From: a virus
Virus record (IMG/VR): IMGVR_UViG_3300042503_000461
Location: 1-34,869 of that record
DNA: 34,869 bases
Reading direction: 5' to 3' (one strand)
Part shown: positions 3,619 to 9,430 of the stretch, piece after piece
How positions within the stretch are numbered: the stretch's first letter is position 1
How the letters are laid out: the number at the start of each line of letters is the position of its first letter
The notes under the pieces: model-generated
Databases searched by the model: none
What the model was told of the DNA's origin: nothing
The model's input: the letters and a program-made list of their open reading frames with translations, nothing else
Position numbers and translations under genes: made by a program

Positions 3619-4758
3619 ATGGGGTGGCTAGAACAACTTCTGCGGCGTGCAGCGCCTGGTGATGTGCCAGCCGATCCCATAGCCGGCTCGGTCATGTCGC
3701 CAAACTATGTCCCGCAGACAAGCCGCCGCCAGTTAGGGCTTGGCGCTTTGCGCGGGCTTTTGGATGTCACGCCCGTTGGGATTGCCGATGCGGTGCAGTC
3801 CGGCATCAACAACATGCAAAGCCCCGTCGGTGCTGCGCTGCGGGCAGTTACCGGCAAAGCGGCGTCGCCCGGCGATGTCCTGTTGGGGAAACTTGGGCTG
3901 CTGGGCAGCGGCTCTGGATATGACGCAGGGCGCTTTGCGCTAAATGCTGCGTTTCCGGCAATGGGGTTGCTTGGCAACCAGGCCGGCGGCGCTCTCCCAA
4001 AGGGTTACGCAAGGAATCAAGCTGGGGCCATTGTGTGGCACGGCTCGCCGCACAAGTTCGACAGGTTCGACGCCAGCAAGATCGGCACGGGCGAAGGTGC
4101 GCAGGTTTACGGGCATGGGCTGTATTTGGCTGAGTCGCCGGAGGTTGCCCGTATGTACCAGAAAAATACGGGGCGCGTTTATCAGATTGATACACCCAAT
4201 GGGCGCCAGCCTCTCGATTGGGACAAACCAGAACATCAAGCAGCGGCGTTGTTGCACCTCAGCAATCGAAATCGCGCTGATGCACTCGCAAGCCCTTTCC
4301 AGTCACAAGAAGTGCGGGATATCCTGAATAGCGGGATGCCGCTGCCGGCGGTAAAAATACAAGACCCGTCACTCTACAAAGTCGACCTGCCCGACGACCA
4401 GATCGCCAAGATGCTGGACTGGGACAAGCCGCTGAGTGAGCAGGCACCGGGGGTAAGAAGCCTGATTGAACAGGAACGCAAACGCATTGGCGGCGGCGCA
4501 AGCACTGGCGAGCAGGCCTACAGAGAGTTGATGTTTGAGGCTCGAATGCAAGGCGATAGGAGCGCGTCTAACGCAATGAGAAACAACGCAGAAGCGCTGG
4601 CGGCGTCTAGGCGTTTGCAGGAACTTGGCATCCCCGGCATCCGCTACCTGGACGGCGGCTCACGCGGCACAGGATCAGGCACCAGCAACTTCGTCGTGTT
4701 CCCCGGCAACGAGGGCTTGCTGAACATCCTAGAGCGCAACGGCCAGCCGATCCGATGA
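3619..4758 (+). CDS. ADP-ribosyltransferase-like (ART-PolyVal type) protein
   Basis: This 379-residue protein has a clear Shine-Dalgarno (TGGAGG) before its ATG. Residues 1-130 are a Gly/Ala/Pro-rich region resembling those of phage virion proteins. From 139 comes the pattern WHGSPHKFDRFD, GTGEGAQ (156-162) and GHGLYLAES (165-173), typical of the ART domain found in polyvalent phage proteins. It ends with a FVVFPGNEGLLNIL motif common to the family. Such enzymes move ADP-ribose from NAD+ to a target. The N-terminal region and position next to tail and lysis genes fit a protein carried in the virion and delivered to the cell, but this is inference. The exact catalytic triad is not certain. Confidence 0.75.
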   Translation: MGWLEQLLRRAAPGDVPADPIAGSVMSPNYVPQTSRRQLGLGALRGLLDVTPVGIADAVQSGINNMQSPVGAALRAVTGKAASPGDVLLGKLGLLGSGSGYDAGRFALNAAFPAMGLLGNQAGGALPKGYARNQAGAIVWHGSPHKFDRFDASKIGTGEGAQVYGHGLYLAESPEVARMYQKNTGRVYQIDTPNGRQPLDWDKPEHQAAALLHLSNRNRADALASPFQSQEVRDILNSGMPLPAVKIQDPSLYKVDLPDDQIAKMLDWDKPLSEQAPGVRSLIEQERKRIGGGASTGEQAYRELMFEARMQGDRSASNAMRNNAEALAASRRLQELGIPGIRYLDGGSRGTGSGTSNFVVFPGNEGLLNILERNGQPIR

Positions 4759-6890: not shown

Positions 6891-7339
6891 GCTGCCAGCA
6901 CCGGGTTGCTCAACCACGCTGACGCAACGTCCGGCCTGCGCGTGTTGACTGCGTTTTGAACTTGGTTCGATTCCCGCCAACCAGGAGTGATATAGACGTA
7001 GGACTTGTGTGGCGTGCCATGCTCGTTGAGAGGGTGGTACGCATCTAGCTCGCCGCTCTTTAAGGCAAGCCGCAACGCGGTGTGGATGGTTGCCGGCGGC
7101 CCGCCAATGTGCTGGTGCAACTCTCGGTAAGAGAGCGGCCCATGCTCGTTAATGAGCTCTGCAATGCGCTCGATAACAGTTGGCACGGCTGGCCGCTCCA
7201 CTCCGTTGTTGCAATGCGTTGCCAAGGCTTCCAGCAGGTCACGCAGCGGCCTATGCGCAGCGCGCGGGTAACGCTGTTCTATATCTGCTATACGCTCCAA
7301 GAGGCGCTCGGAATTGTGTGTAACTGTCATGCCTGTCAT
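6887..7339 (-). CDS. Putative winged-helix DNA-binding protein
   Basis: This protein has 150 residues; ATG 7339 is preceded by purine-rich GGAAAGGAAAGG. The middle (about 50-115) reads as a winged helix: ERIAELINEHGPLSYRELHQ, then HIGGPPATIHTALRLALKSG as recognition helix region, then a wing ending HKSYVYITPGW. The first 45 residues are helical and charged. It is the first gene after the long pentamer tract and heads the overlapping run leading to the integrase, so it may regulate this distal part of the operon. The fold is inferred by eye; the target is unknown. Confidence 0.6.
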   Translation of the reverse strand: MTGMTVTHNSERLLERIADIEQRYPRAAHRPLRDLLEALATHCNNGVERPAVPTVIERIAELINEHGPLSYRELHQHIGGPPATIHTALRLALKSGELDAYHPLNEHGTPHKSYVYITPGWRESNQVQNAVNTRRPDVASAWLSNPVLAA

Positions 7340-7375
7340 GCCTTACCTTTCCTTTCCAAATGCCGCCACACCTCG

Positions 7376-7749
7376 CCTGCCTGACCAAACGTCGCCTCGC
7401 CTCGCCGTGCCGTGCCGTGCCAAACCTCGCCTCGCCTGCCGTGCCCCACCAATCCGGTCGGCGCCCGTCCTAACCTGGCCTCGCCTGCCACACCGTGCCC
7501 CGCGTTACCGGGCCATGCCAGTCCTCGCCTGCCGTGCCCCGCCCCGCCGCGCCGCGCCGCGCCGCGCCTTGCCATGCCGCGCCTGCCTTGCCCAACCAGG
7601 CACCACCGCGCCTTGCCCCGCCTCGACATGCCTCACCGCGCCTGCCTAGCCTCGCGGTGCCTTGACCGGACATGCCATGCCGCGCCGTACCCTGCCTGCC
7701 TCGCCTTGGCATGCCGCGCCAGGCCGCTCCATGCCGTGCCCAGCCTGCC
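7376..7749. repeat. Degenerate 5-bp tandem repeat tract (NNGCC on +, GGCNN on transcript strand)
   Basis: The whole gap between two minus-strand genes consists of units ending GCC. Perfectly phased runs are visible: six units at 7392-7421 (TCGCC x3, GTGCC x3) and ten at 7534-7583 (GTGCC, CCGCC x2, GCGCC x4, TTGCC, ATGCC, GCGCC). Elsewhere four-base TGCC units and short insertions shift the phase. The period of five is not a multiple of three, and frames through it are Arg/Ala-rich low complexity, so it is not coding. It begins immediately after the stop of the gene ending at 7750 and stops just before the ribosome site of the next gene. The leftward transcript would carry it as purine-rich RNA. 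Confidence 0.85.
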
Positions 7750-8226
7750 TTACGCCGCCAGCCCATCCTCGTCTGGCCGACGACGCACAACTCGTGCGCT
7801 CATCAACCCCAGGCGCTCCACCATCTCATCCACTTCGCGCATCAGCCCAAACATCCGCGACAGCTCCCGCGTGCGTTCCAGCAATGCGCGGGCGCGAGCA
7901 AACTCCTGCGCCAGCGTCTGGTGCTGCAAATCCTCGACGCTGATGCTGCGCGTGGCGATATAGCTCTGCGTTGACGGTTGCGCCTCGGGGTTGCGCACAT
8001 ACCTGGGGACGGTCAGCGAGTAGCTGTCGGTGGTAATGACAACCCTGCGGGACAACAACGTGCGGGCCTGCCAGATGCGATGCGCGTGTCCCGCCTTTTC
8101 GTTGTCCCACTCAAAGCAGTTGTGCGCCGGACAGTCGGGGTCTTGCGCCAACTCCACCAGTTCGTCTGGCGTGATGTTGGGACGCTCGCGCTCAATCTCG
8201 TCAAGCCACTCGCTGATCGTTTCCAT
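7750..8226 (-). CDS. Hypothetical phage protein, 158 residues
   Basis: It starts on ATG 8226, which overlaps the stop of the RAMP-like gene (TAATG), so the two are translated together. Residues 1-35 are acidic and helical (METISEWLDEIERERPNITP), followed by PAHNCFEWDNEKAGHAHRIW, where Cys and His residues cluster, then a strand region (SRRVVITTDSYSLTVPRYVR). The C-terminal 60 residues form a long charged helix. I do not recognise a family. The coupling suggests a partner of its upstream neighbour. Confidence 0.65.
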   Translation of the reverse strand: METISEWLDEIERERPNITPDELVELAQDPDCPAHNCFEWDNEKAGHAHRIWQARTLLSRRVVITTDSYSLTVPRYVRNPEAQPSTQSYIATRSISVEDLQHQTLAQEFARARALLERTRELSRMFGLMREVDEMVERLGLMSARVVRRRPDEDGLAA

Positions 8227-8993
8227 TACGCAGCCACCTTAAATCCGCGACGCTTCACCTCAACATCGAACCAACCCATCAATTCCTCGGTTTGATCGTC
8301 GTAGCACTGCGGGTCATCCATTGCCGCAATCTGCGCAGCCCTGCCGCCCGCACTCACAACCTGCGCAAACGCCGGATCGGTTTCAGCCATGCCAATGTCG
8401 AATTGGCCGAAAGTTCCCGAGCCTTTCTCCGGACGCCAATCGCCCACACCGATCGTTAGCCCAGCCTGGGTCAGCAGGTTGACGATGCTGGTGGTCTTGA
8501 TGATTGACGACGCGAAATGCACATGGATCGTCGCGGCCCACTGCGGAACGATGCAGCGGGTGCGGATGTCCGGTGTGCGGTTCATGTCCGCGCTGCGCAC
8601 AGGCGTCATCAGAACCTTTGGGACGCCAAAGATTTGTATGTATTCACCCTCGATAAACGTCAGCCGGCCAATCTGCGACTTAGCTGCGCCAGGCACATCA
8701 ATTGCTGCTGTTCTGAGCGCGCCCTTGAATGCCGTGCTGGGCATAGCCAACAGGGTCGCAGCGCTGTCGTCGTTGATCCGGTGCGGTGAGCTGCGAAACT
8801 CTGCCATCGGGTCATGCTTCAAACTGCTAGCCTTTTCTGCCGCGTTCTTGCGGCCTTTCGGCATCAGCAGCTCATGCAGCACTTTCTCGCTGAGTCGATT
8901 AAGAATCAGCGGGGTGCGACCAAGCACGTTGACGGTGAGTCGCTCGCGTCGAATCTCCGGGACTTCGATTTCTGCACTCTTTGTCGTAGCCAT
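8226..8993 (-). CDS. Conserved phage protein, possible RAMP/Cas7-like fold
   Basis: This 255-residue protein has a strong Shine-Dalgarno (TTAGGAG) before ATG 8993. It opens with a strand-like LTVNVLGRTPLILNRL, then MPSTAFKGALRTAAID (about 83-98), which resembles the P-x-S-x-x-K-G-A-L-R segment of RAMP/Cas7 proteins. Near the end, AGLTIGVGDWRP followed by GSGTFGQFDI resembles their glycine-rich loop. No other cas genes or CRISPR repeats are present. It lies in a recombination/replication operon between two pentamer tracts and behind a two-hairpin leader. The RAMP reading is my inference from motif resemblance; a role in recombination or RNA binding is unproven. Confidence 0.6.
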   Translation of the reverse strand: MATTKSAEIEVPEIRRERLTVNVLGRTPLILNRLSEKVLHELLMPKGRKNAAEKASSLKHDPMAEFRSSPHRINDDSAATLLAMPSTAFKGALRTAAIDVPGAAKSQIGRLTFIEGEYIQIFGVPKVLMTPVRSADMNRTPDIRTRCIVPQWAATIHVHFASSIIKTTSIVNLLTQAGLTIGVGDWRPEKGSGTFGQFDIGMAETDPAFAQVVSAGGRAAQIAAMDDPQCYDDQTEELMGWFDVEVKRRGFKVAA

Positions 8994-9001
8994 CTGTCAC
9001 T

Positions 9002-9049
9002 CTCCTAAGTTGATGCGCCATTCGCATCGGTCAGGGCTGTCCCTGACCG
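9002..9049 (-). promoter_or_regulatory. Two-hairpin 5' leader with Shine-Dalgarno for the RAMP-like gene
   Basis: On the transcript strand the leader has a perfect 9-bp hairpin (CGGTCAGGG at 9028-9036 with CCCTGACCG at 9041-9049, 4-base loop). Directly after it comes a 6-bp hairpin (GATGCG 9012-9017 with CGCATC 9023-9028), then the ribosome site TTAGGAG (complement of 9002-9008). There is no U-run, so it is not a simple terminator. It could control translation, serve as a processing site or bind a protein. The structures are seen in the sequence; the function is inferred. Confidence 0.55.
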
Positions 9050-9175
9050 CTGAAAACGGCCTGCCTTGTTACAACTCGCCGCACCTTGCCTTGCCTGGCC
9101 CTGACTCGCCCCGCCTGCCTTGCGTAGCCAATCCGATCCCCGCCGTGCCCCGCCTCGCCTTGCCTGCCTTGCAGA
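9050..9175. repeat. Second degenerate 5-bp repeat tract (NNGCC / GGCNN)
   Basis: This tract has the same unit as 7376-7749 but is shorter. Phased runs include TTGCC TTGCC at 9086-9095, TCGCC CCGCC at 9106-9115, and five units at 9140-9164 (CCGCC, GTGCC, CCGCC, TCGCC, TTGCC). It starts right after the stop codon of the SSB-like gene and runs up to the hairpin leader of the next gene. A shared unit in two separate gaps of one operon argues against chance composition. Confidence 0.75.
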
Positions 9176-9430
9176 TCAAAAAGGTACGTCCTCCTGATAC
9201 GAACCCGCAGACTGACGACGCGGCTGCGGACGTTGTTGCGGATCGTCACGCGGCTTTGGCTCAAAGAAAGTTAGCCAGCCGTCAAAGTTCACTGGAATCG
9301 ACTCCAGCTTCAGCGACAGGCCGTTCTTTCCTTCAACCACCACGCCGCACTTAATCCATTTCTGCTTTTCCTCGCCGGATTGAGTGGTGTACTTCTCGCC
9401 CCTGGCGCACGCTTCAAATTTGACGCTCAT
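9176..9430 (-). CDS. SSB-like single-stranded DNA-binding protein
   Basis: This 84-residue protein begins on ATG 9430, overlapping the exonuclease stop. Residues 1-55 look like a minimal OB-fold core (KFEACARGEKYTTQSGEEKQ, then KCGVVVEGKNGLSLKLESIP). A Pro/Gln/Arg-rich disordered linker follows. It ends in acidic-aromatic EDVPF, like the partner-binding tip of bacterial SSB (DDDIPF). Known SSBs are about twice this length. It would coat ssDNA for the annealase and exonuclease encoded just upstream. The tail motif is the main evidence. Confidence 0.65.
   Translation of the reverse strand: MSVKFEACARGEKYTTQSGEEKQKWIKCGVVVEGKNGLSLKLESIPVNFDGWLTFFEPKPRDDPQQRPQPRRQSAGSYQEDVPF

What the first reader, a model, noticed from the sequence alone, without database searches (positions are those of the whole stretch)
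7376..7749. Long degenerate 5-bp repeat tract filling an operon gap
About 370 bases are built of NNGCC units (GGCNN on the transcript), with perfectly phased runs such as ten units at 7534-7583. The third to fifth bases are constant while the first two vary, so this is not a simple satellite. The period of five rules out a coding repeat. It starts right at a stop codon and ends just before the next ribosome site, so it acts as a spacer. Possible roles (all inference): RNA element for a bound protein, R-loop or replication structure from the G-rich transcript, recombination substrate for the phage's own annealase, or Chi-like sites.
Basis: partly seen in the sequence, partly recalled or inferred. 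Interest (0 to 1): 0.72.

Follow-up and report, generated by a model that had tools for sequence, protein, structure and literature searches.

The report
RNA guide array aimed at rival phages
The odd five-base repeat is a store of guide RNAs for VIPR, a recently described CRISPR-like weapon carried by viruses of bacteria, and one of the guides in this virus spells out part of a DNA-binding-protein gene found in its close rivals.

Summary
In detail: 7375-7749 holds 44 GGY pairs spaced five bases apart, against 3.9 +/- 1.9 in shuffles. A second tract lies at 9059-9168. Read on the transcript (minus) strand, the tracts are rows of GGY-NN units cut into nine blocks of 8-11 units by a four-base slip, GGCA|GGC. 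The two tracts flank gene 8226-8993. Its family matches the solved SUSP1 Vipr protein (E=1.5e-41) and folds like Csm3/Cas7. Of 120 virus loci found by DNA pattern alone, 87 contigs carry that family. This is a VIPR locus (PMC13142463): the tracts are vrRNA guide arrays. Decoded with the published one-base-skip rule, guide 9120-9164 matches 16/16 bases of an ssb-like gene (single-strand-binding protein) in sibling phages. Skips 0, 2, 3 and 4 give no 16/16 match there. Across IMG/VR only nine contigs match, eight in that gene family. The window carries a different ssb-like gene, so it spares itself. The partner gene differs from SUSP1 vap1, and guides are punctuated by GGCA rather than by tails. 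I file it as a new member of a known kind. Targets of the other guides, processing and activity are untested.

The parts
8226..8993 (-). vipr gene: single-domain RAMP protein (phrog_4652 family), the RNA-binding backbone
   Evidence: Family profile hits PDB 36pp_D SUSP1 Vipr E=1.5e-41; SUSP1 Vipr hits the family HMM E=1.9e-44; AF2 pLDDT 88; Foldseek top hits Csm3/type VII RAMP subunits E 9e-6, probability 1.0
7750..8226 (-). partner gene (phrog_15946), candidate vipr-accessory protein
   Evidence: Adjacent to vipr here and found in 24 of 84 tract loci that hold vipr; not homologous to SUSP1 vap1 (E 0.05); no significant fold match, only weak DNA-binding folds
9120..9164 (-). tract 2 guide 1, 9 units, NN AA.GA.GG.AC.GG.TC.TT.TA.AA; decodes to N/K-D-G-T-G-S-F-Y of the rival ssb-like gene
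   Evidence: 16/16 match with 1-nt skip in sibling phages; 8 of 9 IMG/VR exact hits in that gene family
9066..9115 (-). tract 2 guide 2, about 10 units (last ones imperfect); largely shared with L131 and L134
   Evidence: Unit parse; relatives
9004..9058 (-). conserved structured tail between tract 2 and vipr (nested hairpin GGTCAGGG-ACAG-CCCTGACC and flanks)
   Evidence: Present in all relatives with tract 2; fold z = -4.5
7701..7745 (-). tract 1 guide 1 (9 units)
   Evidence: Unit parse
7647..7696 (-). tract 1 guide 2 (10 units)
7588..7642 (-). tract 1 guide 3 (11 units)
7490..7529 (-). tract 1 guide 5 (8 units); the core of this cassette is shared with L129, L134, L135, L187, L188
7441..7485 (-). 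tract 1 guide 6 (9 units); core shared with L132 and L135
7382..7436 (-). tract 1 guide 7 (11 units); related guide in L134
7375..7749 (-). whole tract 1 with its eight GGCA|GGC slips at 7375, 7434, 7483, 7527, 7581, 7640, 7694 and 7743 (each 7 nt, first base given)
9059..9168 (-). whole tract 2 with its three GGCA|GGC slips at 9059, 9113 and 9162
7337..7377 (-). end of array running into the ribosome site and start codon of the next gene
   Evidence: conserved end in relatives
9176..9430 (-). ssb-like gene of the window's own type (EDVPF tail), not matched by its guides
   Evidence: Carriers of the anti-ssb guides all have this type; no guide of the family reaches 14/16 on it at skip 1

Best explanation
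The tract is one of two guide-RNA arrays of a phage-borne VIPR system. Transcription of the early operon yields RNA made of GGY-NN units (shown: unit structure and strand; inferred: transcription). A small RAMP protein encoded between the arrays coats each guide, probably one protomer per five-base unit, gripping GGY and presenting NN (inferred by homology with the published SUSP1 system). The NN pairs, read with a one-base skip, pair with double-stranded DNA of rival phages and block transcription of the target gene. The skip falls on codon wobble positions, so synonymous changes there do not help the target escape. In this phage the guide at 9120-9164 fits the ssb-like gene that sibling phages carry where this phage carries another type (shown as a sequence match; repression is inferred). 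The four-base slip GGCA|GGC marks the border of each guide, and guides are gained, lost and swapped as whole cassettes.
For: The Vipr family profile matches PDB 36pp 'SUSP1 Vipr protein' at E=1.5e-41; SUSP1's own gene hits the window-family HMM at 1.9e-44. The AF2 model resembles Csm3/Cas7-like RAMPs. The preprint PMC13142463 describes Vipr + vap + vrRNAs of 9-16 YNNGG units and the 1-nt skip rule. A pattern-only scan gave 120 loci, 84 with the Vipr family in the fetched stretch and 3 more elsewhere on the contig. All 30 phage records found by tract DNA similarity also carry Vipr. GGC is on the coding strand in 95 tracts against 12 on the opposite strand. Guide 9120-9164 matches 16/16 in six sibling loci at skip 1; no family guide reaches 16/16 at skips 0, 2, 3 or 4. 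Only nine IMG/VR contigs match exactly, eight in the same ssb-like family and in codon frame. A second guide, from sibling L130, fits the N-terminal part of the same gene family (15/16 in siblings; 24/26 in L285). The anti-ssb guides are found only in phages with the other ssb type. Against ssb-like genes of the rival type, family guides score 16 and 15 of 16, while 60 shuffles never exceed 14. The best self-match of any window guide is 13/16.
Against: No RNA or activity data exist for this phage. Six percent of unit-shuffled guide sets gave some 16/16 match in sibling DNA (9 of 150), so the first target alone is only suggestive; the case rests on the second guide, the shared gene family, the frame and the ssb-type split. 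The sibling hits are homologous, not independent. Two other guides scanned over IMG/VR gave no exact match, and targets of the tract 1 guides are unknown. Per-guide 3' tails, a feature of SUSP1 vrRNAs, are absent here.
Confidence: 0.93

Rival explanations
1. The tract is a substrate for the phage's own annealase and exonuclease (ERF, YqaJ): short imperfect repeats that promote module exchange between phages, with no RNA function.
For: ERF and YqaJ genes lie upstream in the window. Arrays are rearranged between relatives, and in L187, L188 and L190 the two arrays appear fused with loss of vipr and partner.
Against: ERF occurs in only 2 of 50 tract-bearing contigs, while Vipr occurs in 87 of 120. 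Strand bias relative to genes is strong. GG is kept while NN varies. Decoded guides find 16/16 sibling targets only at skip 1. Recombination is better seen as how the array evolves.
Confidence: 0.03
2. The tract is a structured or protein-binding leader that regulates the operon in cis (antitermination, protection from Rho, translational coupling) and not a trans-acting guide.
For: It lies inside an operon between stop codon and ribosome site; the G-rich transcript has few stops; the tail near 9004-9058 folds strongly.
Against: Individual guide blocks do not fold significantly better than shuffles (z -1.7 and -0.5). NN sequences turn over between phages with near-identical flanks. Decoded NN matches rival genes.
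Confidence: 0.03
3. It is a low-complexity satellite expanded by slippage, without function.
For: Period 5, and low-complexity stretches such as the GC-rich run at 7534-7583. A few of the 120 pattern loci without Vipr look like plain satellites, such as L028 (GGCGG) and L019.
Against: NN positions use all 16 pairs. The slip letter is A in 180 of 186 cases across unrelated phages. Tract and vipr are absent together in L184/L185.
Confidence: 0.01

Closest known systems
VIPR system of Escherichia phage SUSP1 (preprint PMC13142463, type II)
   Same: Homologous Vipr protein; GGY/NN tandem units; one array upstream and one downstream of the vipr-partner gene pair; guides directed at competing phages; skip base on codon wobble.
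   Different: Partner protein is not homologous to SUSP1 vap1. Guides stand back to back, separated by GGCA slips, without a hairpin tail after each guide. Units are mostly GGC rather than GGT. Most likely another of the seven published types; the supplement that defines them could not be read here.
VIPR 'staggered arrays with overlapping vrRNAs' (PMC13142463, fig. S18, text mention only)
   Same: A continuous array whose phase shifts between neighbouring guides fits the word 'staggered'.
   Different: Cannot be compared in detail; the figure and supplement are not held.
Class 1 CRISPR Cas7/Csm3 (RAMP) backbones with CRISPR arrays
   Same: RAMP fold with glycine-rich loop; protein polymer on guide RNA; array of exchangeable guides.
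   Different: No CRISPR repeats or spacers, no Cas1/Cas2; guide information is non-contiguous; phage-borne.

Membership tests
VIPR | Vipr protein: small RAMP with glycine-rich loop, homologous to SUSP1 Vipr | tested here: met
   Profile vs PDB 36pp_D E=1.5e-41; reciprocal HMM E=1.9e-44; RAMP fold
VIPR | vrRNA tracts of alternating GGY and variable NN, 9-16 units, flanking the vipr gene | tested here: met
   Nine blocks of 8-11 units in two tracts either side of vipr and partner; one block (7490-7529) has 8 units, just below the published range
VIPR | vipr-accessory (vap) gene next to vipr | tested here: inconclusive
   A conserved neighbour (phrog_15946) exists in 24 of 84 loci but is unrelated to SUSP1 vap1; the other published vaps could not be compared
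VIPR | Target recognition with a 1-nt skip, skip on wobble position | tested here: met
   In silico: 16/16 sibling matches only at skip 1, in codon frame
VIPR | Targets lie in competing mobile elements | tested here: met
   ssb-like gene of sibling phages; shown for one of the nine window guides
VIPR | Invariant structured 3' tail after the repeat tract of each vrRNA | tested here: not met
   No tail between neighbouring guides; one conserved hairpin tail only, after tract 2. This feature is described for the SUSP1 and P. fulva vrRNAs; the paper states that other array architectures exist
VIPR | vrRNA is expressed and co-purifies with Vipr | not testable with these tools
   needs RNA sequencing and pull-down
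CRISPR-Cas class 1 | CRISPR repeat-spacer array with multi-subunit cas genes | tested here: not met
   No further cas-like gene among the scanned neighbours; the tracts have five-base units, not repeat-spacer units
ERF annealase substrate repeats | Tract accompanies annealase genes across phages | tested here: not met
   ERF in 2 of 50 tract-bearing contigs

The most novel reading that the evidence does not exclude
This belongs to a VIPR type in which the four-base slip GGCA|GGC is the guide delimiter. Tail-less guides are stored back to back, the RAMP filament starts and stops at the phase break, and whole guides are exchanged as cassettes. Phages of one population use them to exclude relatives that carry the alternative ssb gene at the same locus.
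Probability: 0.4. Interest if true: 0.75.

Novelty: new member of a known kind. Interest (0 to 1): 0.6.

Why it matters
VIPR is known from one recent preprint. This window gives an independent sequence-only check of its decoding rule in an uncultivated phage: a guide that, read with one skipped base per pair, spells a conserved peptide of a rival's gene. It also shows how such arrays evolve, by whole-guide turnover between otherwise near-identical phages, and points to a conserved punctuation mark that could define where each guide begins and ends. The ssb-type split suggests that closely related phages use RNA guides to police alleles within their own population.

Tried and rejected
ERF/annealase association: 2 of 50. 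Coding repeat: ORFs through the tract arise because only NN=TA makes a stop. Known RNA families: no Rfam match in the window. Exact IMG/VR scans for the cores of guides 7588-7642 and 7441-7485: no hit. Target search of all parsed guides against the first locus set: no difference between skips, as the set held few relatives of the carriers. A resemblance of guide 7490-7529 to the Vipr motif 'LMPKG' was not supported by a match. The L130 guide pattern gave 20 IMG/VR hits, 18 of them outside the ssb-like family, which shows the chance level for 16 fixed bases. Skip-3 hits to ssb-like genes are taken to be the arrays themselves, read inside open frames running upstream of the gene, and were discarded. 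A genome-collection search gave only two distant MAG relatives, so the host is unknown. The partner protein has no significant structural match.

Full report
Observation. The tract is real. On the minus strand, which is the coding strand of this operon, 7375-7749 consists of GGY-NN units. There are 44 GGY pairs at distance five against 3.9 (sd 1.9, max 13) in 2000 dinucleotide shuffles; lag-5 autocorrelation is 0.575 against 0.342. A phase-aware parse shows that the tracts are not continuous. They are blocks of 8-11 perfect or near-perfect five-base units separated by four-base units, GGCA, followed by the next GGC. Tract 1 has eight slips and seven blocks, tract 2 three slips and two blocks. 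The ten perfect units noted at 7534-7583 are exactly block 4.

How widespread. In these loci GGC lies on the coding strand when both neighbours agree, 95 tracts against 12, and the tract starts a median of 17 bases after a stop codon. All 16 NN pairs are used. Of 150 proteins beside the tracts, 36 match phrog_4652 and 16 match phrog_15946, with no other family above 6. These are the families of the window genes 8226-8993 and 7750-8226. An HMM built from the window protein finds phrog_4652 relatives in 84 of the 120 loci, and 3 more contigs carry it outside the fetched stretch. In GenBank phages, the 30 records found by tract similarity (27 Mycobacterium, 2 Gordonia, 1 cyanophage) all encode the same protein family.

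What the protein is. A profile of 79 family members hits PDB 36pp_D, 'SUSP1 Vipr protein', at E=1.5e-41. In reverse, SUSP1 gene 28474-29061 hits the window-family HMM at 1.9e-44. The AlphaFold2 model (pLDDT 88) finds Csm3 and type VII RAMP subunits as best structural matches (E about 1e-5, probability 1.0). The preprint PMC13142463 describes VIPR: a Vipr RAMP, an accessory gene and vrRNAs of alternating GGY/NN. The NN pairs recognise double-stranded DNA with one skipped base per pair, the skip usually falls on the codon wobble position, and targets lie in competing phages. The window locus has the same layout as SUSP1: array, vipr, partner, array.

What the guide reads. All guides of the window and its relatives were decoded with skips of 0 to 4 and compared with sibling phages, the arrays being masked. 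Only skip 1 gave 16/16 matches (12 against 0, 0, 0, 0). All are one guide, at 9120-9164 in the window and also present in L134/L144, against an ssb-like gene in L129/L189, L187, L188, L190 and L193 (peptide NDGTGSFY). An exact scan of IMG/VR returned nine contigs; eight lie in the same ssb-like family and in codon frame. Unit-shuffled guide sets gave some 16/16 match in 9 of 150 trials, so this alone would be weak. A second guide, from sibling L130, spells DNTNRGII of the N-terminal part of the same gene family, 15/16 in siblings and 24/26 in L285. Against ssb-like genes of this type the two guides score 16 and 15, while 60 shuffles never exceed 14. The phages that carry these guides (window, L130, L134/L144) all have another ssb-like gene (KWIKCG type), and the matched gene type is carried by the others. 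L128 encodes the same peptide with AGT in place of TCN serine (sequence), which breaks the match; this is an observation, not a test. No window guide matches the window itself above 13/16.

How the array evolves. Relatives with vipr and partner almost identical carry largely different guides, while the flanks and a structured tail next to vipr are kept (tail fold z -4.5). Single cassettes, bounded by the slips, are shared across relatives: the core of 7490-7529 is found in L129, L134 and L135. In aligned stretches GG changes at 0.2-0.3% of sites, Y at 9% and NN at 23-35%; that count includes in-phase alignments of unrelated guides. In strictly homologous stretches (at least 90% identity) the counts are GG 2 of 338, Y 7 of 176, NN 11 of 358. 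L184/L185, 92-96% identical on both sides, lack the whole module. L187, L188 and L190 appear to have lost vipr and partner by fusion of the two arrays, unless these are assembly joins. Among loci chosen by portal or ERF similarity and not by the tract, 117 have neither tract nor Vipr, 4 have both, and the 3 with a tract only are those fusions.

The slip. Inside tracts of Vipr-bearing loci 186 four-base steps were counted, 180 of them GGCAGGY, with block lengths peaking at 10-12 units. The slip goes with the phrog_15946 partner: 18 of 24 loci with the partner have it, 14 of 60 without. L137, from a Gammaproteobacteria MAG, appears to use GGCT and L138, from a Binatia MAG, GGCG (read by eye from the sequence). 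I infer that the slip marks guide borders. Whether it is a processing site or a stop for the protein filament is untested. The published 'staggered arrays' may be the same thing, and the supplement could not be read.

Verdict. The tract is a VIPR guide array; confidence is high. It differs from SUSP1 in partner protein, in unit composition and in lacking a tail after each guide. Expression, processing and repression in this phage are inferred.

Noticed in passing
L187:2376-2740, L188:2617-2855, L190:3440-3810: Arrays apparently fused, with vipr and partner deleted between them; real deletion by recombination of the two arrays, or an assembly join.
   Followed up: partly
window 9176-9430; L129, L193 and others: Two different ssb-like genes alternate at the same place between exonuclease and VIPR array in sibling phages; guides against one type were found only in carriers of the other.
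   Followed up: partly
L137:6820-8260; L138:5500-5900: VIPR arrays in bacterial MAG contigs with other slip letters (GGCT|GGC and GGCG|GTC), suggesting lineage-specific punctuation.
   Followed up: no
L123, L126, L127 (Mycobacterium phages BobaPhett, Brocalys, Donkeykong); L124 (Gordonia phage UmaThurman); L125 (Cyanophage Cy-LDV1): GenBank phages carry vipr, partner and guide arrays annotated only as hypothetical proteins; the isolates among them would allow laboratory tests.
   Followed up: partly
L028:6056-6302; L019:1120-1162: Pattern hits without Vipr that look like plain satellites (one NN repeated), so period 5 alone is not diagnostic.
   Followed up: no
window 3619-4758: Protein with a weak match to ADP-ribosyltransferase domains of polyvalent proteins (below the Pfam cut-off).
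   Followed up: no
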